From positions 1 to 64,000 of the forward strand of contig JADNRY010000115.1 of the NCBI GenBank assembly GCA_015501585.1: DNA of 64,000 nt, given 5' to 3'. The notes under the pieces are model-generated. The model made no database searches, was not told where the DNA came from, and saw only the letters and a list, made by a program, of their open reading frames with translations. Both the position numbers and the translations under genes were made by a program. This document shows, one piece after another, positions 19,070 to 44,273 of this stretch (within the stretch, counting starts at the first letter, position 1; each line of letters begins with the position of its first letter). This DNA is from Rhodocollybia butyracea (lineage: Eukaryota > Basidiomycota > Agaricomycetes > Agaricales > Omphalotaceae).

Positions 19070-20266
19070 GTAATTGGGTGAGCGAAGCGAAACCCATTGA
19101 TGGAGGTGCCGCTGTGAACAAGCACAGCCTCAATCTGCAGAGGCTGGAGGAGAGGAGAATTTTATTACACGGCATGGTCCAAGTGCTGAACGCCGGAACC
19201 ATTGGGAGAGGAGTGGACGAGCTCGCAACTAAGGTGCTGTAGATCCACCCGCCTCATCAATGGCTAGATATACCACAAACTACCTATATATTTTACTACA
19301 TACATCTTTCTCGCAATACGTAATCTGGTTGTCGTGGGAATTGTGCACGTGAGCATTAGGTAGACTGTACAGGTGTTACATGTGACCTGTCACAGTACGA
19401 GAATTTTTTTGAAGAGGTGCTTTGCTTTTCAATGGTAGGAAAAAAAGACATGATAGGCATGTATTTATTTGTGATTTATTGGTTCAATGATTTCGAGTTA
19501 AAGGATTATGTATGTGGCTGGTAGGTTATGTGGTGAAAGAGCGCATGTGAACGCCAGATGATGTACGATCTGTTGTGTTAATCTGCTGTGCAGCAGGGTA
19601 GAGGTTTTTATTTTCATTCTTTTTAATGTGTATGTATATGTCTGGTTCAAGACGCATGTGCGTTTTGCTGGTTTTTGACCAGAAACGACGTTTAGCGCCC
19701 GTGAGATGATGCAGGGAATGCAGCTATGGTCATGGAGTTTCAAAATGGAAGTCGTGTATGAGCTGGAATGCTTTGACCGGCCAAAGCTAGTATGCGCAGC
19801 GCCTGAGCCGCCTGTTGACATGGATGTACTTCGCTCACCCACTCTGCATTACCTGGAGCCATAGGCTCGTAATGCAAAATTCATATTCTAACTTGACTCA
19901 GACCGCTTAACAGAAGGAAGTGACAATGACTCATTTGTCCTGTAGTCGGGGATTGCTGCGCAGCAGCGTTAAGGATAAATTATCAGACATAAGTAATTAC
20001 AACAATACTTTCGGCGATAATTTCGCCCGATATTTTTTGACGCTGGCGTAGTGAGTAGCAAATATGAATTTTGCATTACGAGTCTATGGCTGCATGTAAT
20101 GCAGAGAGCGAACTAAATCCTGAGGTATGCCACCAGGTGGCTCGGGAGTCGGGAGCCCCGCACACTCGCTTTGGCTGGTCAAAGCAGTTCGACTCCGAAC
20201 ATTGTGGCTGTGCTCGTTCACAGCGGCACGCTCCATCAATGGGTTTTGCTTCGCTCACCTAATTAC
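19070..20266. mobile_element. Fold-back element with decayed inverted arms
   Basis: The left end GGGTGAGCGAAGCGAAACCC (about 19076) is the inverse of the right end around GGGTTTTGCTTCGCTCACC (about 20240-20260). Further inverse pairs lie inward: GCTTTGACCGGCCAAAGC (19770) against GCTTTGGCTGGTCAAAGC (20169), and 19846-19890 against 20062-20107. The arms are unequal because of deletions. The innermost pair brackets a segment that ends in a CACTA-type terminus. Confidence 0.55.
19985..20053. mobile_element. CACTA-type transposon terminus, copy 2 (inverted)
   Basis: It runs from AAGTAATTACAACAATAC through a stretch about TTTTTTGACGCTGGCGTAGTG, the inverse of 6782-6840 with a few changes. It ends in TAGTG as expected for this superfamily. 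Only one end is visible. Confidence 0.5.
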
Positions 20267-20452
20267 TATGGATGAGGACGCTCCGAATACTTATGCGGAA
20301 GCCCTCTAGCCTGGAACAGGTCCCTTGCACCGATTCTGAACTGATATCAAAGCGGCTCCATGAACAAATTGGAGGTATCGTTACTGCGGGAAAGTCCCTG
20401 AAAGTCCCTGACGATAGTCCCCACCTAACGCTGTCGGTCGTTCCTATTTGTA

Positions 20453-20570
20453 GGTTGTATGTAGATCATCACATTGTGGTAATTGAGTTGAGCCCAGTTT
20501 TAGCAACCATAACTACTAGTTACGGTTGCTAAAACTGGGCGATGCAGGCTTGACTACAGCTAAGGACGAT
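20453..20570 (+). pseudogene. tRNA-His-like remnant with internal hairpin
   Basis: GTAGATCATCACATTGTGGT matches the 5' half of the tRNA-His-like family, and GATGCAGGCTTGACTAC matches its T-arm. Between them, 20492-20508 (GCCCAGTTTTAGCAACC) is exactly inverted at 20524-20540, so the intron region has undergone a small inverted duplication. Confidence 0.5.
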
Positions 20571-21881
20571 ATAAGAGTAACCTAAGGCTAGAACAACGTC
20601 TATTTTTCTTCTTCTTCTTTTGTACTTGTAATTAGTATGATATATAGTCCCAGATGATTCAACCAATTGTGGAGATACTGCTTGGAGGACATTGTATAAC
20701 TCTTGAGAGATGCACATGAGAAGGGCGTGAGTCGGAATCAAGAAATCGAGAAACCAGGTAGAATAATTGAAGTAATAGGGTAGGTGAATACAAGGTAAAT
20801 ACGTATGTGTAAGTGTGCATTTAGATGAGAGTATGGGGCCGAGTGTAGACGTGAATCATTATGGAGTGGGACATTGTGGCGTGAGTACTTAAAGTATATG
20901 TGGTGGGATGCAGTTCTATTGGATGGATCATGAGAAACAAAGAGAATGAAAGTAGGGAGCACCTCAGCACAATGACGCGCATTCTGATATGTGTTGGAGT
21001 TGATAGGGGTTGATGTGTTGGGGCTGCACTGCATGTATATGTATTGCCCTTCTGCCAAACCTGGGGCTAGACGGAAGTTGCAACTTGCGTTTCTGATGGG
21101 ACAAAGAGGCGGTGATCGAGGAATGTTTGAATGTAAGAGCTTTAGAATTACCACAGTTATCCATGTAATAAGGAGTGTCTGAGTAGAGACAGAGATTCTT
21201 TGTGACACTTTGTGTCTGCCTGGGCCAGCTCATCTGAGCACAGTTTGGAATTTAGGTCACATAGCTCAAGATCCTTGGAAGACTCTCCTCAGTTCCTTTC
21301 CAAACAACTGAGGTGATACATAGTATTTAGATTCCATTTACCGATGTAGTTACAGAAAGTTGGTCTAGCCTAACAGGCATAGAATACAGCTGGTTTCCGA
21401 ACAACTGATATTGATTTAACCTAACATCACTCCTGCATGTTTTAGAATGCCGTGTACATCATTATAGGATGGATACAGCTTCTAGTATAAGTACTACAGT
21501 GTACTTGGCCTCAACTGAAGATACGGAACATTCTACAACTTCAATACAACTTCCCCAGCCTCTCTACCCATTTGTCAATCTACTGGTAATCGCTGGTTCA
21601 ATCGCTCGCCGCTGGGTAAATCCTGTTTTAACAAGGAGTGCCTGACAAAGTGTGCATTATCTTCATGGCAGCTAACAACCCTAGTTCCCCAGAAACTTTT
21701 TGAAGACTTTTGACGGTCTCCACATCTCTGAAACCGACGTTCTTTTTCAGTCAGAGATTGTTGTCACTTAGTGTACTACAGTGGAAGCAAGTATGAGTAA
21801 ATTAAGCTGGATTCGTGTCGGACTATATGGAGCTTTGGTACGTTGATCGGATTGGGCTTTTAATGTCATATCTATTGAACA
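20571..21881. other. No gene recognised
   Basis: The first part (to about 20760) is a diverged tail of the tRNA-His repeat unit. Minus-strand frames at 20738-21233 overlap each other in two phases and show no domain. Confidence 0.35.
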
Positions 21882-22574
21882 ATGCCTTCATGGCAGCTTG
21901 TGTTCTCTTTGGGTCTCCTTGTGCTAGCTTGCGCTCGCATAAACTATACTCTGCATCTTGCCAGCACTGATCCTTTAAATAATGGCAAAGCTTTTTACGG
22001 TATATCTCTACCACTTGGTCTCAGCGCATACTAATCCTCCCCCACTTTCATTATTCATAGACCCGGTAGTTCCTGAGCTCATTTTCACAACATTGATAAC
22101 AATGGGCTGGTCTGGTCTGATGTAAGTACTTCGACAACTCTTATTAAAACAAGACTCAGCTTTACTGCGCAGGCTTTTTCTATTCTTCAACAACACATCG
22201 AAAATTCAGTTTCTAAGGCTCTATGGTGATGAGCTTATAGGCTTGGTCCTTCTTTGGCTCCTGTGGATTGGCGGAGCTGCTTCTGCAACGGTGAGTCACT
22301 TTCAGGCTATTTTTTTCTTTGGCGTGTGCTCACTGTACACCTGCAGACTCTTTGGGGAAACCTGTCATTTTGCCAGCAATTTTCGCCGTGTCAGATTATT
22401 TCCGCCCTCGAGACATTTGCTTGGTTCGGGTGGATCACTTTGACGGCGATGATCATAATTTCGGTGGTAGTTGTCATACGATCACAAAACAATCACGGGA
22501 AAGGTTTTGCGGAGCGCATTCCAACTCGTTATGATATGGAGGAAAACAAAGAACAAGTCACTGAAGTGGCTTGA
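21882..22574 (+). CDS. MARVEL-like four-helix membrane protein
   Basis: Four exons (21882-21999, 22061-22121, 22173-22290, 22347-22574) give 174 aa. The first intron has a textbook branch site TACTAAT and ends in CATAG. Four hydrophobic segments are visible: about residues 4-20 (LVFSLGLLVLACA), about 46-66 around LIFTTLITMGWSGLML, about 85-100 (IGLVLLWLLWIGG) and about 120-145 (WITLTAMIIISVVVVI). The N-terminal run ARINYTLHLASTDP and the short loops match basidiomycete MARVEL-domain proteins, which lie in the plasma membrane or vesicles; individual functions are poorly known. The tail is acidic (YDMEENKEQVTEV). An earlier start in a further upstream exon cannot be excluded. No neighbour is functionally linked. 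Confidence 0.7.
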
Positions 22575-23781
22575 GATGCTATGTTTGGATCCTAGTAGTT
22601 TTGTACATATATATATACCCAATCTGTCCTATTGTTAGACCCCAGTGTATTCTAGTTAATTATCTATTTAGCCAGAACTGAAACGGAATAAAGATGAAAC
22701 CTGCTTGTCATCCAATTGTCATCTTTTGTTTGTTGTGGTTGGTGGAGTGGTTGGTGGGTGTATAACTATGTTCTAGTGATGCCAGAACTATGCTTACTTT
22801 AACTCCGAAGCTTACTTTAACTCCGAAGTTAGAGTTCATGCGTTGGATGCAAACCTCCTGCTCACTCGACGTTACTATAGGTTCATATCAGTGTTTATCG
22901 CATGCAGTGTATTACTACTTTCAAGGCTGGATGACTGATGGCAAATTCCTAAACAATCTTCGTCGTAGGTAATCGGCGCAGTCGGGAATCGGGGCCGTGA
23001 GGCTCGTACAACAAGGGATAGTGGATACTGGTTCTAACCGTTCTATACTACTTGGCCTTTGTGTCAGGCCTTATATACTACAGTAAGTATTGGTACTCTA
23101 CGGCGTATCCACCGGGTCTGTAACTACTTAGTAAGTAGATGAGTAAGTACTAGGTAAATAATCAGGAAGGAAATACGGAGTGTAGTAATTACCGATACTA
23201 GATCCGGAGTTGCATATTCCGGTCAAAGCGTCGCATCACATCAATCTTGTGGCGTGTCTCAAAGAGAAAGGGTCAAAATTCTCTGTCATCAGCGCAGTAT
23301 AAGTAGATGATGATTAGCTGTAAGTGTGTATTTTGTGCAACGCAGTGGGACATAGATCCTTAGTACCATACTGCCACCCAACAGCTTAATCCATTGGTTG
23401 ACGGGTCAAGGGCTGCCTTACTCGACGTTACAACCAACAATTCCTTTCCCCATCGCTGGATCGCTGGTATAAACCCGAATTGAAAACAAGTACCTTTCGC
23501 CAGGTATGCGGTGCAGGTCGCCCTTCGATACAAAATTTATGTGCAACGGATATCTCCCGATCTCTGTACAGACTATGTCCCACAAAAGCTGTCCTTAATC
23601 AATATTCAACTGGTATGTAAAGAGCAGAGATTTTCGAGCTAAAGATGGCGTTGAAGGCAGTCCCAGCTTCACCGTTCGCATCCAAAACAACTTCGAAATC
23701 ACTTCAGCAGTTTGTTTACCATTACATAATACATTCAGTCCACTACACAAGGCTTACTAGGTAGGTATATGGCTCTGTCAA
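22575..23781. other. No gene recognised
   Basis: The segment includes a microrepeat at 22788-22825 in which CTTTAACTCCGAAG is repeated in tandem. Otherwise it is the 3' flank of the GH43 gene, with nothing supported. Confidence 0.4.
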
Positions 23782-25491
23782 TTAAACAACAACGGGCCAA
23801 CCGGTGCTGAAGTCGAGCAAGTTGATGCCGAGCTAATATCAATAAGGCGCAGAGAGAATTTAGCAACAGAAAGTTTATATCGCCTAGATGACTTACGAAA
23901 GTACCAGCAGAGGTATAGTAGTCTGGATTGGGCTCATTGAGTACGCAGGTATGAAGAATACCAAGGGTATATACATACGATAAACAATGACTACTCCGTC
24001 GACGTCGTTCATGAGATCTTGTCCCCCAGGACCGATGATCTAAAGGGTAAAAGCAATGTTAGTGGGCATCGTGGTTTGCCTATTGAAAGTGGTTCGGAGC
24101 ACATACATTGCCATGAGATTCAAGGACAAGAGTTCCTCCACCATTAGTCAAGGCCACGCCGTTGGCATCGACGTAGTTGCCATTATAGCTGTATCCCACA
24201 GTTGAAGAAGCAAAGATCAAAACTGCACCACAATCATAACTTGAAGCGCGTACGTTGTAGACCTCCCAACATGGATGCTATAAGTACTTGAAGTACCTTT
24301 GCAACACAAATCCCAGGATGTAAACAAATAAAAAAAGCTGCCGTGCTGGAAGATAACGCTAGCTTCCATGGCGTCGCTGTTCACGAAGCGTTGCGCGAGA
24401 TGGTTTTGAGTTGTTCCTGAAGGCTTTCCGGTACTTGAGCTCAGGCTTTACACAAAGAGAATCAGAGCTAAGAAAATCTGCCACGTGAGGCAAAGCTGGT
24501 GTGGAGCTTACGGTTCACCATAGATACCATCCCAGAAGCTCCCGAAAGAAAGGTACCAAACACTTCCCACTGTAATCAACCCTCAACACTATCACGATGT
24601 CAAGACACAAAATCCGACTTACTAACGATCAAGTTGGGGTCAATAGCCTTGAATAATTGGTCAGAAATCTCATTCGAAATTTACTACACACAACTAGACT
24701 CACATTAAAGGCAGCTCCAGTCGAGGTGGAAGTCACCAGACCTTGGTTTGTGAAACTACCTAAAATCATTGTCATTTTCCAACAAAACACCAAAGTATAA
24801 AGTTTTGGGCACCAGATAATCCGGTAGTTGACGTAGCAAAGAAAATGGCGGACTACAACTCGTGATAAGTGAGTAACGACTGCTTAGAAAATTCTTGATA
24901 CATTTTGAGACCCAAACGATGAGGCGGCGTAGTATAACTGGTTGATTCCATATCAGTCAGCTTAACCCAAGTAGAACCTGAAACTCACATAGAATTGCCC
25001 ATTGAGGTAGGTACAGTCGGGGGCCCACAAATTTCTTAGCGAGTATGACAATCAGTGAAACAAGCTCCATTGATATGTAACAATTTGTACCCGTTCTTAG
25101 TTCCGGTGTAGACATCGGTCCAACTTGCACCATTGGGCCATACAGTACCGGCATGAGTGAAGGCGGTCCGATCAGGCGAAGTGAGAATCTGAAGCCCAGG
25201 TGCAGTCGCTAAGTTAAGAGAAAACGAGAATATCTCCTTCAACATAAAAAGCAGAGCGCAAAGAGAGATTCTTACAATAGACAAAATAAGTCCCCGCAGA
25301 ATTTTTGACCATTGTAGGGTCCGCAACCGTTGTAGCACCTATATTTTGTGTCAACACAAGTTAAGAGTTTCAAGAAAAACCCTGCGAGTTAGCAAGTTAC
25401 CTGTTACCAATCCCGGATTCGGAAAGGTTTGAGCATTAACGACCTCGCCGAGGGCCGAGACTGCAAAAAGTACAAAAGAGAAGAACAACAT
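23782..25491 (-). CDS. Secreted GH43-family glycoside hydrolase (arabinanase-like), paralogue A
   Basis: The gene has fourteen short exons read from ATG 25489-25491 to TAA 23782-23784; every junction I followed is GT-AG and in phase. The N-terminus [18 protein letters not shown] is a signal peptide cut near NAQ-TF. The five-bladed-propeller family signature is complete: VADPTMV (general base Asp, about residue 37), AIDPNLIV (second Asp) and MEASVIF (general acid Glu). [15 protein letters not shown] and FTSWDLCC are further family blocks, and the C-terminus ends [13 protein letters not shown]. Family members hydrolyse alpha-1,5-arabinan or related arabino- or xylo-oligomers outside the cell; the exact substrate is an inference. 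Paralogue B at 32795-34446 has the same exon structure. A TATA-like motif and a conserved upstream element lie near 25545 and 25695. Confidence 0.85.
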
Positions 25492-25544
25492 GGTGAAAAC
25501 AAATACTCGTCAAAAACGACAAGTGTCCTTTTGCGAGGACCCTA

Positions 25545-25713
25545 CTTATATCCAAGTTCTATATACCATCCACGATCAGGCACAGGCCCACAGGTCGTCT
25601 GCCCAAACACCCAGTCTTCCAAGTCCATCCTAATCACCGGCTCTGAAAATGAGGAAATAAAGCTCAACTGACCGGGGTTAATATTCATTAGTACTTTCCG
25701 AAGATTAAGCATG
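25545..25713 (-). promoter_or_regulatory. Promoter region of GH43 gene A
   Basis: A TATA-like ATATAAG (minus strand, 25545-25551) lies about 55 nt above the start codon. At 25695-25713 the plus strand reads TTTCCGAAGATTAAGCATG, exactly as it does upstream of paralogue B. A CGGCGGACCGGA block with CGG/CCG triplets, of the kind bound by Zn2Cys6 regulators, follows near 25744. Confidence 0.5.
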
Positions 25714-26993
25714 GTCTTGGATGACATGTAAATGTGATTCTCGGCGGACCGGACTTCCTGGCAGAATAGGTTGCTCGTCACTTTTGTTGTTACTTTTGGG
25801 GAAAAAGATTACAAGGGCCCGAATACAACTTCTCTCGGTTAATCAATGCGGATTGAGAACACTAGTAGTAGTTGAGTAGTAGCACTCACGAATGGACCCT
25901 TTCTGCCAGCTAAACAAAAGGCAACGCAACTTCACAGTCAGTTCGACCGAGTTACTCGAACTCACTAGATATCCCAAACTTCAGAGGAGTTACCGGGTCT
26001 GCCTAAGTCCGAATACCAAACGAATTGCAACCGATTACACTGCTGAAATTTCATCTGCAAAACCTGGGACGAGCTCTGGGTGCTCTGGAGTGCTCTGGAG
26101 CGCTCTAAAGCAGCCAAAGCAACCAAAGCAACCCAGAGCAGCTCACAGCGAGTACCCTTGCTCTGAGATGCTCTGGACTGAATACGGAGGGGAGAGAGAA
26201 AGTGTTCAGTTTACGTGATCAAGGTGCAACCGAGAGACCACATAAGAAGAGGATGACGATACTGTCAAAGCGAAGAACGCGATGAAAGGAAGAGTAGCAA
26301 TAGCCCCGGGCCGGCACTTCATCCGCTTAGTCGGATCATCTGCCGTCGGGGAGCGCACGGGAAACCAGGAGTACGAGTCAGAAAATTAAAAAATGAAGAG
26401 CTTTACATACCATTTCCAGTGTCTCGAGCAACTCGTACATGTCTGAAGTAGTGTACCGAGGCGCCCATGGTCATGACTCCTACAAAGGGCGCTGTTTATC
26501 AGGTCCTTGGCATCGTGAAGGTTGAAATGGTCAATGCACCCGGTCACTTCTCTCTCTCTCGCTTATACTACAGCTCATTGCAAGGAAATTGGAAGGATGG
26601 ATAACGTTTGAAGATCTTATACTTAAGTTTCGTTAATAATACTTCGTAGAGATGATATAAGCTTGGCGAACTCAGCAGATGCGCTGTTGGCCTGTTGGGT
26701 GATACATTGAGCAAAAACTAGCGCCCAAAAATCTGAGCCGAAGTCCGGCTCAGAATTTCGGGCCAAAACATGTGACTACTCCCGGTTTCCGGGGCTCTTT
26801 GCTGCCGTCCGTTGCTTGCCGTTCCGCAACGGAACAACGTTCCCGCCTTTCCCTTCTTTCCCTCTTGCCACCACCAGCATCGATTTACGAAACTGTAAGT
26901 TACATGCTCTCTTATGTCGGCGAGTGAGCTCAAGTATCCGATTCAACTGACAACCACTAAGATACCTTCGAGTTCCTTTTGAAATAGGTTGTC
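25714..26993. other. Intergenic, no gene recognised
   Basis: Visible structure consists of short tandem TGCTCTGGAG and CAAAGCAAC repeats (26070-26140) and an 8-bp-stem hairpin CTGAGCCG/CGGCTCAG at 26733-26753. It separates the start of GH43 gene A from that of the NACHT-CAX gene, so both promoters should lie here. Confidence 0.45.
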
Positions 26994-29900
26994 ATGAATA
27001 CTCCAACAGTGGAAGAATTGGTTCTTACGGGTGAATTAATTAATGAATTTCGCCATTGCCAGGTCACTCAAGTACAATCATAGTGATACGAGCACATCAT
27101 GTCAAATGGAAGAAGACACATCTTCACTCGGATGTTCCAAATCTTTATGTTGCTGTCGAGGTTGGAGACAACAACGAGGAGAAAAAAACACATACCTTAC
27201 AAGAACAACTCAATCCAGAGTGGAACCAAAAGCTGAAATTGTACTTTTGTTCCAAAGCTACTTGACAAGGACTAACAAATATAATCAAGGCTTCATCCAA
27301 TTCACAAATTATCCTTATCTGGGCTCCAACTTCACATCAAGTTGCGGCATAAAAGTCGCTGGACACGTTCTTTAGAAGTTGGAAGGCTCAGCATCGGAAT
27401 TGAGGACCTTTTGAATAAATGTGATGGGAGAGGTGGGGCTTCTGTTATATTTTCTTCATTGAGAGGTACTAATGTTATGTACTCAGTGGTGAATCTGGAA
27501 CTTGAACACGACTCACAAGTTACTGCAATTTTGGATGTTCTTCTGGCCATTGAAGAAATCAACATCATGGAAGAAGCAAATGAACATGTGAAGAACGCTG
27601 CCGTGGATACACTTAAACTGCACCATGATCACAGTAGTGTATTCCACATTGATCAAGCAGCAACCAGTGCTCAAGTTCTGAGGGAAACCGGATATCCCAT
27701 TGAATATGTCTTTGACAAATGCATATACTTTGTAGAAATATTTGATGAGGCTAGCAAGGTGTGTATCTGATATCACAGCTTGTATTTTTATTTTTATTTT
27801 TAAAATCCAGATCCACCCTTGGGCCCAGAGTGCATGGAATATCATATCTTCTTTGTACAAGGTATCCACTTTTTATCAGTCATAAGATTATCTGAGATAC
27901 ATAGTATTACAGGTTGTGCAGAAACAACGCACCATTGACAATCAGGTGATCAATCTTTCTATGGAACTTAGTGATGTGATAAACTATGCAGAGGCTGCCT
28001 GGGCTAAAGAAGAAAAGATAAAACGCTTAGAGGATACATTGATTCTTCTCTTCCAGAGCATAGTTGATTGCTGCATGTTCATACGAGAGTATTCACACCC
28101 TGGCTTTATAAGTAAGTTCTCTATTTATTCCACACTTACACTCTTGAATCAGCAATCTCAGGCCGGTTGATTGGTCTTGACAAGAATGCAAGAGTGGCAT
28201 CTTTAACAGAGTCAATTGCAAAACTGCGAACAGTGTTAAAAGGGGATATCACTTTGGATATTTCTTTCTCTATATCACATGTGACTCAGCTGGTCAAAAA
28301 TCAGGGTGTGTTCATTGTTAGGTTTTTCTGATTTTCACTAAGACTGGCTTCATTGGATTGTCTCTATAGCTCATGAAAGCTTAGTTGCTATCACACAAGT
28401 GTCCGAAATGATTGAAGAACAGGGTATGGCTTTTTATATGACAATGGCTGAATCAATGATTAACTTCTTTACTTCTATCTACAGCTCTCAGTAACCTATC
28501 TGAATTTATAAAAGGTGCTGGTGCAGCGCATGATTCAGATCTGAGATTTCCCCCTCCTAGATGTGATCCTGAAACCCGACAAGAAATACAGACAGAACTC
28601 CTTGAATGGATTAGTTGCAAGGATCTCGAAAAACCTGTATGCTGGGTTCACGGTCCTGCTGGTGTAGGCAAGTCCGCAATTGCACAAACCATTGCCGAAC
28701 TCAGCGAGAGCCATGAAGTTCTCGGAGCGTCCTTCTTTTTTTCACGCAATCACGGAGAACGAAGTCGCCCAGCATATCTTGTTCCCACAATTGCATACCA
28801 ACTTGCGAGCAGTATACCCGAACTGAATGACACAATCGGTCGGGTTGTACGGAAGAAACCAGCTGTTCTGCACTCCTCAGTGGACATACAGTTCAAAGAG
28901 TTATTTGTTAACACCTGCCGATTAGCAATTTTGCTGCATGGGGAAGGATGGATGCGCCAACCAAGGGTTATCATCATCGACGGCCTTGATGAATGCATGG
29001 GGACCAGTCTCCAACAGGGTATCATCTCCCTCATTGCATCTACACTGAAGGAAAACTTTCCATTTCGGTTCCTTATATTCAGTCGACCGGAGCCCCATAT
29101 ACGTGAGGCGTTTGAAATCGATTCCTTAGAACCACACCTGAAACAACTTGGTTTGGATGACTCCTGGGAGACACGTCGAGATATCAAGAAGGTTTTGGAA
29201 ACTGGATTCATCAGCATTCGAAACCATTCTCGGAATGCTGCCCTTAATTTCCCGGACATATGGCCCTCCCGTGGGGTTGTAGACAAGCTTGTTGAAAAAG
29301 CTTGTGGACAGTTTGTCTACGCTCACACTGTTCTCAAGTTTGTTGATGAGGAACATTCACATCCAGTTAAACAGCTTGCAATCATCCTTGGACTGAGGGC
29401 GGCTGCTACAGATAAATCACCTTTCAAAGATCTCGATGTACTGTATGACCAGATTCTTTCTTCATACCCTGACCACTATAAAGTGGTAGCAATACTAGGT
29501 GCGCTCATCCGCCTGAATGGGTTGAGGTGCTGGAAGAGTGGGTATGGCCCATGCATTGAAGTCATTGAACTTCTGCTTGGACTTGATACGGGTGAGGTGT
29601 CGATTGTGTTCCGAGGGATGCATTCTGTCCTCGATATCCACAAGACACATATCCAGATTCTTCATGCATCTTTTAGGGATTACCTTCTTCAAAAATCACG
29701 GTCCGGCCCATTCTATATTGGTGACTCAACTTATATCACTCGTCTGTTTTTGAGCTTCCACACCGCTAGAGTGACAATCATCCACCCTGGCCAGCTTTTT
29801 GTGCTAGTCAAGGATTTTGATGTATCACAATTTCGAGACTACATACCTTGGAGATTGATACTTGTCTCTGACTTCTCAAATATTCTATTCTTATATTTTT

Positions 29901-31921
29901 TTGCATTTGCCCCATTTTTGACTATTCTACTGTTTGGTTTCGCACTTTTAAGTACAATTCTGAACTGGGATGTAGCTTTGCGATTCTCACTCTGCTTTTT
30001 TGCGACTGCAAATCTGGCAAAGGTAAGTAACTTTTTCTTACGGCTCTTTTTTCCTGGAAAACGGAAGGTCGGTGTCATATTTCCATCTCCGTTATATATA
30101 TGGCTAAGTAGTTATGACTTTCTGTGTCCAGGATCCATACTAAAGCATGACTGGTTCATAGTTACTTGGTGAAGCTACGGAGCGTGTATCTGTCAAATTT
30201 GGCGAAACACATGCTGGAATTTTCAAGATGTCTTTCAGAAACATGTCCGAAGTCATCTTGGGTGTATCCGCCCTTCTTCAAGGTAAATATTATACTCACT
30301 CTGATCACAATCGATTTCTGACCCGGTATGTTGCTCCGTGTAACAGGTCAAAATGAGATTGCCCAGCAATTAGTTTAGCCTAATATTTTTATTCCTCAAA
30401 TGCAAAAAGCTGAGATTATCCGCTTAGATGCTTGGATTCATTTTATGCAATGTTCTTTTGGTTTTGGGCGGATCCTTCCTTGCGGGTTTGTTTCCCTTTG
30501 GACTGATTGTTGTTCATAACTGGTAACCTCCTTTCTAGCCGGATTGAAATTTCCTCAAAGCAACTTCGGGGTCACGTCTACTCAAGTGTGAGCGTCTTGA
30601 TTTCTGAGGCATGCTTCTTAGCCTAATTTATTTTACTAGGTCAAGTTCAGTATGTCTAATCTACGTTGCACAGTACAGCTCAAATCTCATGTCTGACTCG
30701 GATAAGCTAATCATAATGACTTGTATCAGTATGTGACATTGATGATGCTCCACACCTTGTTTTTGTCTAATCTCCGATATTGCAGCCTCAAGTATTCCCG
30801 TTTTTCGTTTCAGTGTCAAGACCCCCTCTTCCATCAACGGTATGCCTTTCAAGTGCTATACTAGCATCAAACCTTTGTCATTATATGCAACGCAGACTTG
30901 GAAAAGTGGCAAAATCTATTGATTGTTTCAAGGGTGACTGCAATAATGTTATTGGGTGTATACCTTTGCTATTTGTACTTTCAGGTGAGTAGTCCTCGGT
31001 GTACCTAATATATGCATGTACTGACTCTACCAGCTTAAATCCCATGCCTACCTTTTCGAAACCGAGCTAGAAGAACAAGAGGAAGCACAGACTTCAGTCG
31101 CTACAACAAACCTTATTGTGATAGGCTTGTCGTGAGTCTCTATTTGTCCCATTTGTCTGGTTGTGTGCTTACCCTTCAATACTAAGCTTCGCTATCATCG
31201 CATTCTGCTGTGGGTCTCCTTCCGTTATAAATGCATGATCAAATAAAGAAATTAGCAGTGATTGCATCTATTGAGGGACTTGTTGAACTATATAACATCC
31301 CAAAACATTTCATTGGATTGTTTCTGATACCATTGGTATGTCCATCATATATTTAACCGTAGCGTACTTCCTCAGTGATCACGTTAAATCCCGGCGCCAG
31401 GCAAATGCGTCGAAATACGGTACGCCAGTATGGATGGCCGTGCTGGGTCAGATGGACACAACGATAAGTTTCTGTATTGGCAACTCGATTGTGCGTTATA
31501 AGCACCCACGATCCTCATCCAGCGCTAATGATAGCTTCCAGCAACTGGCTGCATTTGTTGTTCCCCTGCTAGTCATTCTCGGGTGGATGTATGGTTGGCT
31601 GATCTTATTATGGACAGACGCTGACAATCTAGCAGCTTGGGCCAGGAGCTCACCCTTTTCTTCAACAAGTTCGAGACTATCATCTTCTTTGTGTCTATAT
31701 ACCTCGCCCATACATTAATCATGTGCGGTATATACCACTTGCCATTCCGACCATTAACTTAACCTTGCTTGTAGGGATGGGCAGTCAAATTGCCTCGAAG
31801 GTTTGATACTTATCACGCTGTATCTGATCATCGGACTGGCATGTGAGTCTTCTTTCCACCACCCAAAAACTCGTTATATTTGCTAATATAATGTCTCGTG
31901 GTGCTAGTGTGGGTTTTATGA
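26994..31921 (+). CDS. C2-NACHT-Ca2+/H+ antiporter (CAX) fusion protein
   Basis: I read 22 exons, all in phase and open, giving 1221 aa: 26994-27030, 27063-27240, 27290-27758, 27811-27861, 27913-28111, 28162-28305, 28370-28423, 28485-30022, 30162-30282, 30347-30372, 30428-30485, 30539-30587, 30640-30728, 30786-30839, 30896-30984, 31034-31131, 31187-31209, 31256-31335, 31401-31490, 31542-31588, 31633-31722, 31775-31842, 31908-31921. The N-terminal C2 domain (about 13-115) has TIIVIRAHHVKWKK and LNPEWNQKLKL. The NACHT domain has Walker A GPAGVGKSA (about 434), Walker B VIIIDGLDEC (about 539) and FLIFSRPEPH, then the usual C-terminal LHASFRDYL. From about 845 the protein is a CAX/VCX1 exchanger: ALRFSLCFFATANLAK, LLGEATERVSVKFGET, MLGFILCNVLLVLGGSF, an acidic loop ELEEQEEAQ, HFIGLFLIPL, QLAAFVVPLLVILGW, DGQSNCLEGLILITLYLI. 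The first signature motif is RNMSE (916-920); the second is ANASKY with Lys1124 where Glu is normal. NACHT proteins act as regulated NTPase switches; CAX proteins load Ca2+ into vacuoles. The NACHT end and the first CAX helices share exon 28485-30022. Confidence 0.85.
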
Positions 31922-32794
31922 AATTTACCCAGAAAGTCGAATATATCTGAGCCAAAGTATTTCCAACTGCCAGCTGCGGCTATTACTTTCAATGCTTTCG
32001 CGGTTGCCTGAGCCATGATACTTAACTTACTGAAATATATTCCGAGTCTGCAGCGATTATTTTAACCACTCCAAATTAGTACGGATCGGTACAAGTTGAG
32101 GTATAGTTTCGGATCACATCCGCCCTCAGGCTTTGCAGTCTTTTTTGGATTCCTAAACCACTCAGTCTCAAATGCAGGAATCTGCATATGATACAAATAG
32201 CACAATGGCACGGCATATACGGCCGAAATCGCAAATCACCACGACACCAGGCGCTCACTCGAATAGCAAAGGGGAAAGCGTCCGCAGTAGCGCGAGCGGA
32301 AGACGGTCGCAATCACGCGCGCTCGTGAATTCCGGAATATGACCGGAGAACTCACACAAGCATCCTCGTACAACTCCGAACCAACCAAAACTTCCTCTAC
32401 CATCACCAACATGTCCTTGTTGCAAACGCGAAACTGAAAACGCGTTCCTATCTGATACAATGTCCAGCTCACCGTGGAGCGTGGTCCAACCAGCAGCAAT
32501 GGGAAGAAAGGGCATGACCATGGAAGGTCTGCTCAACGACAGCCAAAATTCGAATAGTGCAAGTTTTTCTCCAGTACTTCTATGGTCATCATGACCATGG
32601 TTAAAATTGCCCATATACGAATGGAAAGAAGACATCTACACCCTACCACTTCGTACAAGTTCGTCAAAAGCCTAAGGAGTCCGTTCTGCATATGAAAACT
32701 TGAAGCTTAGGATCCACATCTTATTTACTATCGTCTACTCAGAAGACATTACGAGTATGTGAAGCTTAAGTTTATCTGTACTCCTGGTTTTCAA
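31922..32794. other. Intergenic, no gene recognised
   Basis: Overlapping minus-strand ORFs (32076-32635) occur in three phases without domains. The segment contains the 3' ends of the NACHT-CAX gene (plus) and of GH43 gene B (minus), which converge here. Confidence 0.4.
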
Positions 32795-34446
32795 TCAAAC
32801 AACAACGGGCCAACCGGTGCTGAAATCGAGCAAGTTAATACCGAGCTAAAATCCAAGGGTTCAGCAAAAGAAATTTATATCATGTAGATGACTTACGAAA
32901 GTGCCAGCTGAGGTATAGTAATCTGGAGCAGCATTGAATACACGAGAAAGGAGAATACGGAGGGTATACATACGGTAAACCATGACTACCCCGTCGACGT
33001 CGTTCAGGAGATCTTGTCCTCCAGGACCAATGATCTAAAGGGGAAAGAAACCTTAAACCTCTTCGAGAATAAGAGTAGCCAAGAGACCATACATCACCGT
33101 GAGATTCGAGCACAATAGTTCCTCCACCATCTGTCAAGGCCACGCCGTCGGCATCGACGTAGTTACCATTGTAGCTGTATTCCAGAGTGGAGATCAAATT
33201 TGCATCTATAGTTCAAACACGTACGTTGTAGACCTCCCAACGTGAATGCTATAAGTACTCGAGGTTCCCATGCAGCACAGATCCCAGGACGTAAACAAGT
33301 AGAAGAAATCACCGTTCTGGAAGATGACGCTAGCTTCCATGGCGTCACTGTTCACGAAGCGTTGCGCGAGATGGTCGAGGGTTGTTCCTGAAGGCTTTCC
33401 GGTATTTGAAGCGAGACTTTCCACAAAGAAATGAAAAAAGCTTTGCGCGGTAATATTCGTGAGACTCACAGTTCACCATAGATTCCATCCCAGAAGCTCC
33501 CGAAGGAAAGGAACCAAACACTTCCCACTGGTCAACCGAGGAGCTCTCAATACACTCGACAAGTCAACAAGCAAAATCCGACTTACTGACGATCAAGTTG
33601 GGGTCAATCGCCTGAATAACTGATCAGGACATTGCTCCAAATTCATTCAATGCCTAGATCTATACTCACATTGAAGGCGTCTCCAGTGGCGGTGGAAGTC
33701 ACTAAACCTTGGTTCGTGAAGCTACCTAGAATAATGATTATTTCCAACAATTTCCAAAGTGCAAATTTCCGGTACCAGATAGTCCGGTAGTTGACGTGGC
33801 AAAGAAGATGGCAGACTACAAGAGCTTAAGATCAGTCAAAGAGTATGCACTGAAGACTCTTACATTTTGAGAACCAAACGATGAAGCGGCGTAGTATAAC
33901 TAACAGATTCAATGTCAGTAAAATTGATAAAATACAAGCCAGAACTCACATAAAATTGACCATTCAGGTAGGTACAGTCGGGAGCCCACAAATTTCTTAA
34001 CGAGTATGACAATCAGTGAAACGAGCTCCATTGATATATAACAATTACCCGTTCGTAGTTCCAGTGTAGACATCGGTCCAACTCGCACCATTAGGCCACA
34101 CGGTGCCAGCAAAAGTGAAGGCAGTCCGATCAGTCGAAGTAAGAATCTGAAGGCCAGGTGCGGTTGCTAAGTTCAGAAGAATATTTCTTCAACGTGAATT
34201 CCTGAGCACGTAGGCTCAAACAAGATCCTTACAGTAGACAAAATAGGTCCCCGCAGAATCTTTAACCATTGTAGGGTCTGCAACCGTTGTATCACCTGCA
34301 TTTTGTGTGATATAAGTGAGTGATATAGGTGAGATTTGAGAAAAACGTTGCGAGTTACCGGTTACCAATCCCGGATTCGGAAACGTCTGGGCATCAGCTA
34401 CTCCACAAAGAGCCGCGACTGCCAAAAGTGCAAAAGAGAACAACAT
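32795..34446 (-). CDS. Secreted GH43-family glycoside hydrolase (arabinanase-like), paralogue B
   Basis: Fourteen exons are read from ATG 34444-34446 to TGA 32795-32797, with intron positions matching paralogue A. The signal peptide [19 protein letters not shown] ends before QTFPNPG. The catalytic triad signature is complete: VADPTMV (Asp36), AIDPNLIV and MEASVIF. Other landmarks are [59 protein letters not shown] and a final [13 protein letters not shown]. The protein should fold as a five-bladed propeller acting on arabinan-type polymers outside the cell. A TATAAA on the minus strand at 34501-34506 lies about 55 nt above the ATG. A Zn2Cys6 regulator gene lies 1.2 kb further up on the same strand and is a candidate controller by proximity only. 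Confidence 0.88.
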
Positions 34447-34500
34447 ACTGAAAATTTCGTCGCAGAGACAAGCGTCCGTCCGTTCGCTACAGATGCAGAT

Positions 34501-34649
34501 TTTATACTTTTTGAAGGTCAAATTTCTCTATGACATCGAAATTCAGGAACACGTCTGCCCCACTCTCCCAAGGCCGTCTATCCATTAACCAATCTCAAGA
34601 AGCGGTTCGAGTCTAAAATAGATTAGTTGGTTTCCGAAGATTAAGCATG
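34501..34649 (-). promoter_or_regulatory. Promoter region of GH43 gene B
   Basis: A minus-strand TATAAA occupies 34501-34506. The plus strand reads TTTCCGAAGATTAAGCATG at 34631-34649, identical to the element above paralogue A and at a similar distance (about 190-200 bp) from the start codon. ACGGTCCGGA near 34691 is a CGG/CCG-type site. Confidence 0.5.
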
Positions 34650-34975
34650 CAGTTGGACGGACCAGCATTGGACCAGCAATGTGATTCTTGACGGTCCGGA
34701 TGAAATTGCTTGCTACTGAAAAGGCTGTAGATGTTTTCCAAGAAGGCGGCCCGAAGACACATATTTCAATTAACCCAAAACCTCTGTAGATGAACGAACG
34801 CTGTAATGGTGAATGGTACCAGTACCGACCTCGCTGGGGCTACTCGGACTTGTCGGCGATGGACTGTCTACTGTCAATATTCGCCAATCTAATGGTTAAT
34901 AAAAGTGCTCACGTTACTCATAAGAAAACACCAAATGGATCACCGCAGCTCACCTCTTCCAATTTTTCTGTTAGT

Positions 34976-35140
34976 TTTCCGAAGTTTAAGCATGAGGCCA
35001 TGTGGCCATTGAGTTGCGCCATTAGATTCGGGTCGTCTGAGGTAGTTATTTTTATCGACCTTTGGCTTCCGTTTGGCTTCAAAGGATAAGTACTTGGGTA
35101 AAAGTTGGCACGGTAACGAAAAGAGATATAAATCCGGGTC
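34976..35140. promoter_or_regulatory. Third copy of the GH43 upstream element
   Basis: TTTCCGAAGTTTAAGCATG at 34976-34994 differs by one base from the elements above both GH43 genes. A plus-strand GATATAAATCC lies near 35128. No third GH43 gene follows on either strand inside this interval, so this may be a duplicated promoter fragment. Confidence 0.35.
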
Positions 35141-35668
35141 CGGGACCTCTTCCTGATGATGCAAGTCAAATGTGAGTGAGCGCTAAATTTCCAAGTTACG
35201 AAGCTTGTTAGGCGGCACTAAGTACTGTAGATACTGAATAGTAATTATCCATATCAAGCACTAGATTCTACTGCAGTTGAATGCATACATATTTCCAGAG
35301 TGGATTTTAAGTCCAAGTGCACCGGTCTGTATTCAGCTTAGTGCTCTAGCAAAACATTGAATCATTGTAAGTTAGTGTGTACCCTGGCCGCAGCAAGGCC
35401 GCAGACACTATAGTAATATAGCGAGTTATGCTCAGAAGCGAGTAGCTTACTACACCTAAGTATGCAGTGAATCAAATTGCAAACAAAGAAAATGCTGGGA
35501 CGATAATTTATATAAATCAAAATAAGTAAAGATAAGGTTAACAAGGTTAACTGAAGTTCAGCCGTTATTCCAATCTAATGACCACCCTCACTCCGCTCTC
35601 CTAGAGTCTGGCCGCCTCGTGGGACTCCACTGTGTATAAATATACTTACTGGTTTTAAAAAAGCAAGG

Positions 35669-37671
35669 CTAGCACTTAACGTTAATGCACGCCATGTAAG
35701 TCTGGCGAACACGAGCTAGCTGAGATTCTTCTGAAAGTCAGAACCAAGAAATTCAAGGTCGATTGAAGGATCTTACCTATAAACGATGACCTGGAAGCGA
35801 ATATTTGCATCGTTGACATGATGATTTCGGTAGAGTTCATGAGCTCCTTTAGTGATACTCTTTTTGGCATCCTGGAAGTATTTTGACTGCCGATCTCTCT
35901 TATAAAGACGTTGGCAGTTATCGTCCACAGGCACTATCACAATCATACATCAGTACCTAGAGTTGTAAAACAGATAACCACTCACTCCCGTGATGGGGTC
36001 GATGAAAGGGAAGTCAGATAGATTAACGCTTTTCAGCAGAGTGACAACGCTTTCCGCGGATCCCAGAACTTGCGCATGAGATGCAGGATCCGACTGCTCG
36101 AACGTGCCGTGTAGGATAATAGCTGCAACACGACACAGTGTGTGTACAACAAGTAGGATTCGAATGGTGCTTCGAGAGTTATTGGGACCCGATAAGGGAG
36201 GAATGGATGTGGCCATTCTATTGATTACACTGTTGAGATTATTGAACGTCTGTTGGAAGCGGGTCGCCTCCTGAAGCGCCATATCTTCGCATTATGAGCT
36301 AGGAAACAGACCGAATATTCGCAAAGGCAGCTCACGAGGATTGTATTGACTGCGTAGCAGCGACGCTTTTTCAAATAAGATTGCAGATTTAGCATGAAGG
36401 GCGAGAAGAGATTGTCCATTATCAGGAACATTGGCTAAGAAGTTTTGGACGGTATACCTCCCTTGAAGATTGTCTGGGAGTAGAGTCTGATAAAGAAATA
36501 TAAGCAGGGCATGATACAATTGTTTCAAAGACTTACACGCGAATAAGTCCCAGCATCCAGAGGCCAAGGAGCGTCGATTCGAGATTCAGGAACGTCGTAT
36601 GCTATGTTTGATACGGAACCATCGGCGGCAGTCCAGCAAGAGTTCAAGATGACCACCTGCCAAAGAGCATTCAGCCTTTCCCCTTCATCGACTGGGTCTA
36701 CAGGTGGCGGTAGGCTGTGCACCCCCGCCCGTCCTTGAAATGCATATATATCGGCTGAGCGAATTTTGTGGAGTCCAGCCCCTAGAACCATAGATACGGC
36801 ATTGGATAGCCGATATTTTCCTTCGACAGTACGGCCGTTAATGAAGAGGTACTGTGCTAGCAAAATTTCTGCTTGCACGCAGTGAATAAGACTTTGGGCT
36901 AATTTGATGGGGTTCCGGGACAATCCATGAGAGACGTCGTGCAAAGCCTGTGATAAAAACGCGGATTGTAGAGCAGACAACTCGTTCACTGGAGAAAGGT
37001 ATGCCCCAAGGAGCTGGCAAGCGCTGAGGATTGAAGGAAATGGCTGCTGCTGAGACGATGAAAGCGAAGCAGTAAACCGTGAATAGTCGAGGCAGAATCC
37101 AAACTCAGACGAGTATGGTAGGAAAGAGCGAAACCTTGAACATGAGGATCATTAATACAGCGATGGTAGTAGCTTTGGTGTCAGAACTCACAACGCTTGT
37201 CGCATGTTCAACGAGATCTTGTAAAAGAAGGGTCAGCACTACGAATAAGTTGAGCAGCACAAAATCTTACATTCAATGGCGTATGTCGTGGGGCAGATGT
37301 TGAACTACTAGTTTTATGGAGAGACAATTTTGAAGGCTCGTTCGGATGTTCAAGTTGTTCGAGCCGATTTTCGAGAACCGCGATCTCTTCTCGCAAACGT
37401 TGGTCTGGAGATAGACTACCGTCGGAATACCTGCAAGCACTGGGAAGTCCCGAACTACATGGCGAGCATACAGGGCGTTTGCCATCGCATCTCTAGGAAA
37501 GGTTGGAATAAAATTAAGATCTGAGAACGAGTCCAAAGTGCTTACAATTTTCCGCTGCCTAAGGAGCCATAAGTATCTCAGTTCTTTAAACAAAAATCAA
37601 AACATAGCACTGTACCTGCAATTTATACAAGCGGTCCCTTTTGGAGATCTTCCCAGTGGTGTTTTAGACAT
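35669..37671 (-). CDS. Zn(II)2Cys6 transcription factor
   Basis: Nine exons are read from ATG 37669-37671 to TAG 35669-35671. The binuclear zinc cluster starts near residue 15: CINCRQRKIRCDGKRPVC continues to SPC and a sixth Cys (C-x2-C-x6-C-x6-C-x2-C-x7-C), split by two introns after the second Cys and before RCDG. A short coiled-coil linker follows (EEIAVLENRLEQLE). The middle region matches the fungal-specific regulatory domain: QSLIHCVQAEILLAQYLF, VSMVLGAGLHKI, NALWQVVILNSCW and SLLALHAKSAILFEKASLL. It should act in the nucleus on CGG-type sites. Its target is unknown. The GH43 gene next to it, which carries CGG/CCG triplets upstream, is a reasonable guess. Confidence 0.85.
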
Positions 37672-40600
37672 TGACAGTTATTGTGGAGGTTAATATCTCG
37701 AGGTTATATACGCCCGCTACTTGCCTAGGAGATTCTACGCCGTGTTCGCACATCCTATGCGACTAAAGAGCTTCCTAATGTGTTTCGGAGGATCATTGAT
37801 GATGAAGGGGTCGCGGGCAAAGCTGCCCTACATAGCACGGGTGCGGTCGACGCCTACAACGTCGCTGTCTCACATTCATTAAACTTCTTTTTTTCCGTTT
37901 GAGGCAGCTGGCCAGAAATAACGACGATATGAGTCCTCAAACCAAAGCCCAGGATCTAAAAACGACTCCAGAAAAAAGGCCAATTTCGACAAGATTTCTC
38001 TCGAGTGCCTAGTGTCAACGAAATTCAAGAACTTTATTTACGACATCAACTGTCTTCTCCACGTTCAATGAGCTATGATGATTCGATGAAATGTTACCTC
38101 GTAGGCAAGGAGAGTGATGTAGATTGTCAAAAGTTCCCTGCCAGAAGTGGCAAAAAATGACCGTCCAGGATGAAGGCGGAGATCAGTGACTCATGAGCGA
38201 AGGAGAGTAAATACGATCACGTGGGGGCTAATTCAGAATACGAGTTTAAAATTATCAGGAGTTATCACAGTTCTATTCTGTCAAATAAACCTTCCTTCCT
38301 CTCTTCGTCATCGTAGTCATTTGTGAAAATAGACCTCCAAAGCATTAGTATTCGACCACGGCGACGGTGCAAATGCCCCGGCCAATTGAGGTGGTACTGC
38401 ATGGGTCGTGTGCTTAGTGAGCGCTGCTCAATTCCTTGGTCATACCATCAGCCCCTTTGGATTCCTGTTACATGTACGAACAAGACATACTGTCACGTCC
38501 GCGTCCGCAAGTATCCCCGCACCTGCATCTGCAGAGATCAGGTGGAGCGGAGGCTCATCAGCGGTGGCCAGGACGGCGAGGATGGAGCAGGGTATCCGAT
38601 GCAATATCTCCTTCAGATATCATACATACGGCCTCTCACCTCCTTCGTAGAGATGTATGCTGAACGGTGTTTCGATGAGCTCAATCAGGACTCATCGACA
38701 GTCATCCGCAGTGTCGACGCGTGTGTTCCAACGCTTGTAGAGATTCCCCAAATGCATATGCATTCGACCCATACCTCCTACGAAACGACTGGCTATGGCC
38801 GAAACCTAAACTTAATACTGTGGATAATCCTGTGAGTAATACGGAACGAGGAGGCAATATTCTAACATACCGGTGCACGCCTTCCCTCGCCGACCGCGGA
38901 GCTTTTGCACTGGATGCAATATTACAGCCCATGATAATTTAACCAAACCAGCCCGACCTTCTCCTATGTATACACATCCGCACATGCACAAGTCCTAGAG
39001 ATAATTATACGACCACGGGCAATGACATGGTAAGACTCACAGAAATTGATGAGACCCGGAGAACACCGATATTTGAGACCAAAGGTGAGTAGCAGGTAGC
39101 ATGAAACCCGTGAAATGCTTTTCATGTATCATTATCATATGATGCACGCCGATATTGGCCTCTCCTTCCTGTTGCGGTGAGCGCTCCTGGGCCATCGGTG
39201 ATACGGAGTTCCCCACTAGTGCTGTCGACCGTGATTGAGGTGTATTTTTTGTGGAGCTGGTCAGATACGTTGTGCCAGCGGGAACCTGTGGCGAGCGAGA
39301 TGACCGCTAGAGTACCAAAGATTGAGGGACAGGGAGATGATTTGAGTCGACGCAAAGGAAAAACCCCTACCTCGATCCGAGTCGGACTTGTCCCAGTGGC
39401 TGGGAAAAGGTGTGTAATGGGCTCTTCTTGCGGTGAGCGCTCCCGGGTCATCGGTGATACCGAAAGTTCCCACTGACGCTGTCGGCCGCGATTGAGGCGT
39501 TTTGGAACTTGGTCAGATAGGTGTGCCAGCGGGAATCTTCGCGGCAGTGGGACGTGACCGCTGGAGAATACGGGGAGTGGGGGGCAGGAACGGATATAAC
39601 ATCACCTCCTCAATCCAACTGGGACTTGTTCCAGCGTCCTTGACTTTGTTATATATACCTGGTTACGAGTCCACACTCGTCCTGAAGGTATGGAATGAGT
39701 CAACCGTTAGAAATGCTCATAGAGCTATGATACATGGCCAGGAATTTGAGCACTACGAGTGGACTACCAGGGTTGGAAGAGGAAGGCTAGCGCTCGCCCC
39801 ATTGGGACTGACCAAGACTATGGATTGCGAGTCTCATGATGTACAGATTTAGTTTATCTGATTATTGTACCGGCAAACTCTCTAAGTATCATTCATTCGG
39901 CAAGTAGTTGTTCTTTCTCGACTTTTATGGTATCTTGGACCTTCTGGGACTCGGAGCCAACTCGGAGCTAGAGTGGCAGTCTAGTGTATGCGGCGATCAA
40001 ATCAAAACCCATCGTTGAGTAGGGAGCCTTTCGGTGTTTTGTTCGAACTCTACAAAAGTGAACCTGCCTCGTGTATATAGTGGAATTCCACGACCAAGTC
40101 GAAGTACTTGCTGATCGGAATTTGCGAGAGCGTCTGTGTGAGTCTGAGCGCCGGAAAGTCTGGGCATTCGATAGAGAAAAGTGTAGAATACTAGAAACCT
40201 CTTGAAGGATCCCTCAGTATTCCGAAATCAGATAAGAAAGCTGTATATGATATGATATGATTGTCCATGACATTGAGAAAAAGTGCTTGGCTGTTAATTG
40301 GTGCTGTCTATCAATATGTTCATTCGAGTAGAGGAGAGAACGAGTCTACAGAGGCGATTAGCCAGTGCTTTGACTGTTTTTTTGACTTTCTTCCAACAGT
40401 TTGGGACGCGGGGTGACTGAGACGGTGAAGGTTTTGACGATGTCCGGATACCAAGGTGGAACAGCTAAAGTTCCAGTATCCGGAGTACTGAAATACTACG
40501 AGACCCAGCGAGTCAGCTGTCTTCCAAATAGATGGTGTTACGTATCGGCCGTAAATAATCTTGGAAGTTCCAAAGCGATGGGTACTTAAAGAGACAGAGC

Positions 40601-44120: not shown

Positions 44121-44273
44121 TGGAACGAGGGGTGAGAATCGTGGATATTGGACATTCAATAGAGAATATATGTTACTTATTATGAAGCATCTATCACGAA
44201 GATGAATATGTGGCGTAAGTCGTACTTTTATTCTGTGTTGGGCTAGCCAACAGCTAACGGCCTCGCTTCCCAC

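What the first reader, a model, noticed from the sequence alone, without database searches (positions are those of the whole stretch)
26994..31921. In-frame fusion of an NLR-like C2-NACHT module to a vacuolar Ca2+/H+ antiporter
Twenty-two exons join with consistent phase and no stop from a C2 domain, through NACHT Walker A/B motifs, into a full-length CAX/VCX1 exchanger. Exon 28485-30022 encodes both the NACHT end (LHASFRDYL) and the first CAX helices (ALRFSLCFFATANLAK), so the join is not created by a splice choice. I know of no described NACHT-CAX protein. It could couple NTP-dependent sensing to Ca2+ release or sequestration, similar in logic to plant resistosomes acting as Ca2+ channels, or carry the exchanger as an integrated decoy. 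Seen: the motifs and frame. Known: what NACHT and CAX domains do alone. Inferred: the coupled function.
Basis: partly seen in the sequence, partly recalled or inferred. Interest (0 to 1): 0.95.

Follow-up and report, generated by a model that had tools for sequence, protein, structure and literature searches.

The report
Mushroom NLR fused to dead exchanger
In the mushroom Rhodocollybia butyracea one gene reads in frame from an immune-receptor-like C2-NACHT module into a copy of the vacuolar calcium/proton exchanger whose calcium site is damaged, so it may be a membrane anchor or bait rather than a working transporter.

Summary
From 26994 to 31921 (+) 23 exons (not 22) splice with GT-AG into 1221 aa without a stop: C2, helical region, NACHT with intact Walker motifs, then two Na_Ca_ex stretches. 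The join lies inside exon 28485-30022. The contig is Rhodocollybia butyracea AH 40177; its deposited protein (451 aa) starts at our M756, in the NACHT tail, and runs through the join. No listed homologue is labelled with both NACHT and Na_Ca_ex. The exchanger part is a genomic duplicate of the normal CAX: 12 of its 15 introns sit at identical positions and phases. It is probably not a working exchanger: one of two calcium glutamates (VCX1 E302) is lysine and 7 of 11 named site residues differ, yet the frame is open and looks constrained. A Lentinula relative shares derived residues and also has a damaged site. I read it as an NLR-like protein with an integrated, probably transport-dead membrane domain (bait or anchor). 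NACHT-driven Ca2+ transport is disfavoured. No transcript data were seen; two gene products or slow decay remain possible.

The parts
26994..31921 (+). C2-helical-NACHT-CAX fusion gene, 23 exons, 1221 aa
   Evidence: splice model; Pfam; one place in the genome by DNA search
27063..27758 (+). exons 2-3 with the C2 domain (aa 17-115)
   Evidence: PF00168 39.4 bits
27811..28423 (+). exons 4-7, most of the helical region between C2 and NACHT; aa about 191-328 resemble other loci of the genome at 33-44%, several of them beside NACHT matches
28485..30022 (+). exon 8: NACHT (Walker A GPAGVGKS aa 434-441, Walker B IIIDGLDE), NACHT tail (HASFRDYL), linker, first CAX helix; holds the join
29618..31883 (+). 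extent of the deposited R. butyracea protein P0011 (BDP27DRAFT_1229918, 451 aa), which starts in the NACHT tail and splices the CAX part differently
30162..30282 (+). exon 9, first alpha repeat: reads FRNMSEVI for FGNAVELI; Glu (E920) kept, Gly to Arg
31401..31490 (+). exon 19, second alpha repeat: reads ANASKYGT for GNAAEHVT; the essential Glu is Lys (K1124, codon 31413-31415)
30162..31921 (+). exons 9-23, CAX-derived membrane domain; most intron positions shared with the canonical CAX of the same genome

Best explanation
It is a fungal NACHT NLR-like gene (C2 effector, helical region, NACHT switch) whose C-terminal sensor position has been taken over by a duplicated, diverged copy of the vacuolar Ca2+/H+ exchanger. 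The CAX part keeps nearly its full length, both repeats and an open, constrained frame but has lost the ion site, so it most likely serves as a vacuolar-membrane anchor and bait (integrated decoy) rather than as a transporter: something that binds or attacks the vacuolar exchanger, or damage to that membrane, would release the NACHT switch, and oligomerisation would bring the C2 domains onto membrane lipid and trigger a death or incompatibility response. Shown: the join, the motifs, the origin from a CAX gene with its introns, the loss of the second Ca2+ glutamate. Inferred: one transcript, membrane location, sensing, output.
For: Join inside one open exon and no Met codon between M756 and M913, so a CAX product with its first helix must carry a piece of NACHT unless an unseen first exon is spliced in; the deposited model also carries it. 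NACHT motifs intact. CAX part is a genomic duplicate: 12 of 15 introns identical in column and phase to the canonical CAX on C602, two more have matching phases in a gap-rich stretch, one is unmatched. Constraint: synonymous sites saturated (pS 0.79) while pN is 0.32; 79 of 108 near-invariant columns kept against 127 of 272 others; in 300 neutral runs at each of four distances none stayed free of stops. Loss of ion site: K for E302, 7 of 11 named site residues changed, while 117 of 121 aligned rows keep both Glu. C2 as N-terminal domain of basidiomycete NLRs is published (PMC4986451 passages), and C-terminal kinase domains as putative integrated decoys in fungal NLRs too (PMC12258605, section 14 read).
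Against: No transcript or protein data. The deposited protein, from a pipeline that used RNA-seq (PMC8480192 passages), begins at M756 and does not include C2 and the NACHT core. The only other diverged CAX of this lineage that I saw (P0076, Lentinula aciculospora) is deposited as a separate 397-aa protein, so the site may have decayed before the fusion and not because of a bait role. No second species with the fusion was found. The CAX part lacks about two residues at the 1084-1092 stretch in my model. The C2 and helical part (aa 1-400) has no match at E 1e-3 among the 250 fetched proteins.
Confidence: 0.4

Rival explanations
1. Two gene products, not one: a C2-NACHT product that ends by retention of the 139-nt intron 30023-30161 (frame open to a stop at 30170-30172) or by alternative splicing, and a separate CAX-like product starting at M756 or from an unseen first exon.
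For: Deposited protein starts at M756; frame is open through the intron to 30172; Lentinula P0076 is deposited with its own Met near the matching place. Proteins that look like merged neighbouring genes occur in the same search results, e.g. CAX plus RdRP in Mycena floridula.
Against: A product from M756 would still carry about 50 residues of NACHT tail with the HASFRDYL motif, which is odd for an independent transporter; no Met between M756 and M913, so the first helix has no other start in that exon.
Confidence: 0.22
2. Chimeric gene in slow decay: the CAX copy lost function after duplication and fusion and nothing depends on it now.
For: 29 of 108 near-invariant CAX columns lost; ion-site residues replaced by unlike ones; branch length 4.15. 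The Lentinula relative has also lost site residues.
Against: No stop or frameshift in the 398 codons used; near-invariant columns are kept more often than others; substitutions alone to 65% and 44% identity left on average 6.8 and 11.0 stops. The frame test is weakened by homology-guided splicing.
Confidence: 0.2
3. NACHT-controlled Ca2+/H+ exchange or Ca2+ release: the CAX part still moves ions and NTP state gates it.
For: Two Na_Ca_ex stretches and the first Glu are present; the model of the deposited protein resembles VCX1 4k1c, at low confidence (mean pLDDT 62; TM-score 0.40-0.49).
Against: E302 is Lys and H303, S129, S132, S325, G102 are changed; 117 of 121 rows keep both Glu.
Confidence: 0.08
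4. Assembly chimera of two unrelated loci.
For: Only one assembly was available; the locus was found once.
Against: The join lies in frame within one exon; no N in the window. The deposited protein spans it, but it comes from the same assembly and is not independent.
Confidence: 0.03

Closest known systems
Basidiomycete NACHT NLRs with N-terminal C2 (Dyrka et al. 2014, PMC4986451, passages seen)
   Same: C2 - NACHT order, Walker motifs; the genome has many NACHT relatives (122 matching stretches reported)
   Different: C-terminal part is a membrane exchanger; no WD40, ANK or TPR family in the Pfam list
VCX1/CAX Ca2+/H+ exchangers (PDB 4k1c)
   Same: Two Na_Ca_ex stretches; 166.7 bits to 4k1c over 40-396 of the 398-aa piece; introns shared with the canonical gene
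   Different: Fused behind NACHT; E302 to Lys, 7 of 11 named site residues changed
Putative integrated decoys of fungal NLRs (Sordariales, PMC12258605, section 14 read) and plant NLR-IDs (listings only)
   Same: Domain derived from a host gene joined to the C-terminal side of an NLR
   Different: The cases detailed in that section are zinc fingers, SPRY and kinases; here a polytopic membrane protein stands where repeats would be. The supplementary list of 185 domains was not seen.
Diverged CAX P0076 of Lentinula aciculospora
   Same: Same residue at 32 of 113 columns where both leave the consensus (shuffle mean 7.9, 0 of 2000 reach it); N-terminal stretch like the linker (score 44, 0 of 1000 shuffles); damaged ion site
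   Different: Deposited as a separate protein of 397 aa; its genome context was not available

Membership tests
Fungal NACHT NLR | NACHT NTPase with Walker A and B | tested here: met
   NPHP3_N 86.8 bits, NACHT 43.5 bits, GPAGVGKS and IIIDGLDE (motif names recalled)
Fungal NACHT NLR | N-terminal effector domain | tested here: met
   C2 39.4 bits at aa 17-115; C2 named for basidiomycete NLRs in PMC4986451
Fungal NACHT NLR | C-terminal repeat sensor (WD40, ANK, TPR) | tested here: not met
   none among 14 Pfam families at E up to 1; CAX sits there. The claim is therefore NLR-like, not a canonical tripartite NLR.
CAX/VCX1 exchanger | two Na_Ca_ex repeats over the full length | tested here: met
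   two stretches, 51.3 bits; 4k1c 54-401 aligned
CAX/VCX1 exchanger | GNxxE Glu of both alpha repeats (E106, E302) | tested here: not met
   first Glu kept (E920), second is Lys (K1124)
CAX/VCX1 exchanger | Ca2+/H+ exchange activity | not testable with these tools
   needs transport assay
NLR with integrated decoy | extra domain derived from a host gene that also exists alone | tested here: met
   canonical CAX on C602 and 99% identical copies on C636 and C393, introns shared
NLR with integrated decoy | fusion kept across species by selection | tested here: inconclusive
   no second fused protein among the 10 and 120 listed hits or by BLAST of the 250 fetched proteins; relative P0076 deposited alone, context not available
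NLR with integrated decoy | domain binds a foreign effector or ligand | not testable with these tools
   needs experiment

The most novel reading that the evidence does not exclude
A polytopic vacuolar transporter, stripped of its ion site, serves as the built-in bait and membrane anchor of an NLR: a membrane-embedded integrated decoy in a fungus, implying that the vacuolar Ca2+/H+ exchanger is a target in fungal conflicts.
Probability: 0.25. Interest if true: 0.85.

Novelty: new variant of a known kind. Interest (0 to 1): 0.6.

Why it matters
If it is one protein, it extends NLR integrated domains from soluble modules to a whole membrane transporter, and points to the vacuolar exchanger as something fungal NLRs watch. 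It gives a concrete test of whether fungal NLRs guard organelle membranes. It also shows that a CAX family hit need not mean transport.

Tried and rejected
Second fused species: protein searches over both halves gave no protein labelled with both NACHT and Na_Ca_ex among 10 of 10 hits and the 120 shown of 121 (a few long label lists there are cut off). BLAST of the full protein against all 250 fetched proteins: 128 match the CAX part, 95 the NACHT part by the script's limits, none both; the limits left out NACHT rows that end past aa 829 and P0011 itself. In one search only 120 of 666 hits were shown, so further diverged CAX proteins may exist unseen.

Other copies in the genome: none by DNA. 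Other Na_Ca_ex loci include the canonical CAX in three copies (99.1% and 99.7% identical to the C602 copy over 3.25 kb) and more distant exchangers. C561:5547, a 619-aa frame with a NACHT match about 4 kb away, looked like a lead; by eye it is a different exchanger type, and I tested it no further.

Allelic copy: the flanks 20000-26900 and 32000-40000 have no second full-length place in the assembly, so no allele without the fusion could be compared.

Tree (23 rows): the fused CAX and P0076 are both very long branches outside the canonical set; the program warns that long branches meet, so I rest their kinship on shared rare residues and the N-terminal stretch.

Linker: it also scored 46 against a NACHT protein (P0131) inside its NACHT part, and in 11 NACHT proteins BLAST carries the NACHT similarity past aa 815, weakly, up to 874 at most. 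So the exact join point (between about aa 790 and 842) and the linker's kinship with P0076 are unsure. None of the 120 NACHT proteins P0131-P0250 has two or more strongly hydrophobic segments in its last 200 aa.

BLAST of aa 1-400 against the 250 fetched proteins gave no hit (repeated with error checks); those proteins were picked mainly by their NACHT or CAX part.

Structure: only the deposited model P0011 was folded (mean pLDDT 62); it lacks three exons of my model and says little beyond a CAX-like fold.
Full report
What is there. I rebuilt the gene from the raw sequence. Twenty-three exons between 26994 and 31921 on the + strand, all introns bounded by GT and AG, give 3666 nt and 1221 aa without a stop. 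Pfam finds C2 (aa 17-115), NPHP3_N/NACHT (aa 415-580) and two Na_Ca_ex stretches, all above their curated cut-offs. The Walker A (GPAGVGKS) and Walker B (IIIDGLDE) motifs are intact (motif names recalled).

The organism. The best protein match of the CAX part is Rhodocollybia butyracea BDP27DRAFT_1229918 (P0011, 451 aa); it is identical to the window wherever the exons agree, and its contig length, 187853, equals that of the window's contig C169. The published genome is that of strain AH 40177, JADNRY000000000, annotated by the JGI pipeline with RNA-seq used to improve it (PMC8480192, passages only). The deposited protein starts at our M756, inside the NACHT tail, and runs on through the join; compared with my model it reads some intron sequence and leaves out three exons that correspond to canonical CAX. 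So the deposited protein already crosses the join but does not include C2 and the NACHT core. I did not see how that upstream part is annotated.

The join. Exon 28485-30022 is open throughout. Similarity to NACHT paralogues of the same genome is clear to about aa 790 (HASFRDYLL...RSGPFYIGDS; tails of several of the 19 loci were not read in the right frame there). In 11 deposited NACHT proteins it goes on weakly past aa 815. CAX similarity begins at about aa 842. The only in-frame Met codons around it are M756 and M913, and M913 lies after the first helix. A product containing the full CAX region therefore has to begin in or before the NACHT tail, unless an unseen first exon is spliced in.

Origin of the CAX part. 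The genome has an ordinary CAX on contig C602, with copies 99.1% and 99.7% identical on C636 and C393. I spliced the C602 copy by a small alignment program guided by the Lentinula edodes protein (its last residues were not checked to a stop). Of 15 introns of the fused CAX part, 12 lie at the same alignment column and phase as in the canonical gene, two more (aa 1084 and 1092) have matching phases in a gap-rich stretch, and one is unmatched; the canonical gene has 16. The fused part is thus a genomic duplicate, not a retrocopy.

Is it a working exchanger? I aligned the fused part, the canonical copy and 119 of the 120 listed homologues (P0011 left out because it is the same gene; 546 further hits were not listed). 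117 of 121 rows carry both alpha-repeat glutamates. The four exceptions are the fused part (Glu, Lys), P0076 of Lentinula aciculospora (Lys, Asp, beside a two-residue gap), P0127 (Glu, Asp) and P0123 (Glu, gap). Against VCX1 (4k1c), and with the residue list given in PMC10531375 (passages), the fused part keeps N103, E106, N299 and Q328 and changes G102 (Arg), S129 (Phe), S132 (Cys), G298 (Ala, which many canonical fungal rows also have), E302 (Lys), H303 (Tyr) and S325 (Asn). I conclude that Ca2+/H+ exchange is unlikely. This is inference from sequence; no activity was measured.

Is it decaying? Against the canonical gene, synonymous differences are saturated (pS 0.79) and pN is 0.32. The fused part keeps 79 of 108 near-invariant CAX columns and 127 of 272 others. 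Substituting the canonical CDS at random gave on average 6.8 stops at distance 0.2 (65% identity) and 11.0 at 0.4 (44% identity), and none of 300 runs at any of four distances was free of stops. The fused part, 191 of 383 positions identical, has none. Indels were not simulated, and my choice of splice sites helps the frame, so this is support and not proof. Long constraint followed by recent decay is not excluded.

A relative. P0076 of Lentinula aciculospora, a species that also has a canonical CAX (P0018), has the same residue as the fused part at 32 of 113 columns where both leave the CAX consensus (shuffle mean 7.9; 0 of 2000 reach it); at 36 columns where both carry residues unseen in the 117 canonical rows, 11 agree (shuffle mean 2.4; 0 of 2000). 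Its N-terminus resembles the linker (score 44; 0 of 1000 shuffles), although a NACHT protein scored 46. A diverged CAX lineage thus seems older than the split of the two species. Whether NACHT sits in front of it in Lentinula could not be examined. If it does not, the loss of the ion site may have begun before the fusion, which weakens the bait reading and favours the anchor or decay readings.

What is known. C2 as an N-terminal domain of basidiomycete NLRs is described (PMC4986451, passages). Wojciechowski et al. (PMC9815663, word search of the main text) has no occurrence of 'exchanger' or 'transmembrane'. Non-canonical domains, among them C-terminal kinases proposed as integrated decoys, are described for Sordariales (PMC12258605, section 14 read; its supplementary list of 185 domains not seen). 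Searches for NACHT with calcium exchanger or antiporter, and for integrated domains in Agaricomycetes, listed nothing of this architecture; I saw titles and abstract starts. That is absence from these searches of an open-licence library, not from print.

Mechanism. In NLRs the C-terminal part is the ligand-binding or autoinhibitory side and the N-terminal part the effector (as put in PMC4986451). Here the sensor place holds a damaged copy of a vacuolar transporter. The most economical reading is a membrane-anchored receptor with the exchanger as bait; the C2 domain would act on lipid after NACHT oligomerisation. Every functional step is inferred. The main rivals are two separate products, and a chimera in slow decay.

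Noticed in passing
window 23778-25499 and 32791-34454: Two stretches, 77% identical and in the same orientation, lie on either side of the fusion gene; a minus-strand frame in the second has a weak Glyco_hydro_43 match (21.3 bits, below the cut-off of 32.2). The fusion gene sits between tandem duplicates.
   Followed up: partly
G000 contigs C602, C636, C393 (L037-L039): The canonical CAX gene is present in three copies about 99% identical; other exchanger matches come in pairs with near-equal scores (C14 and C292; C938 and C215), which suggests redundant or haplotype contigs.
   Followed up: partly
P0109, P0130: Rhizoctonia solani and Ceratobasidium theobromae each have a CAX protein that also bears PF01557 (FAA-hydrolase type, name recalled), 693 and 656 aa: a shared fusion or a shared merged model.
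   Followed up: no
P0173, P0175, P0207, P0243; P0001: Deposited NACHT proteins also bear domains or names of actin, ribosomal L39, a mitochondrial distribution protein or an aminopeptidase, and a Mycena CAX bears PF05183 (RdRP, name recalled): probably merged neighbouring genes, a caution for any annotated fusion.
   Followed up: no
window 42409-48106, minus strand: Two reading frames with putative cyclase domains (PF04199), one with an OTT_1508-like deaminase domain and one with Hydantoinase B.
   Followed up: no
window 30023-30172: The intron after the join is 139 nt, longer than the other 21 introns (32-65 nt), and the frame stays open through it to a stop at 30170-30172; retention would end a C2-NACHT protein there.
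   Followed up: partly
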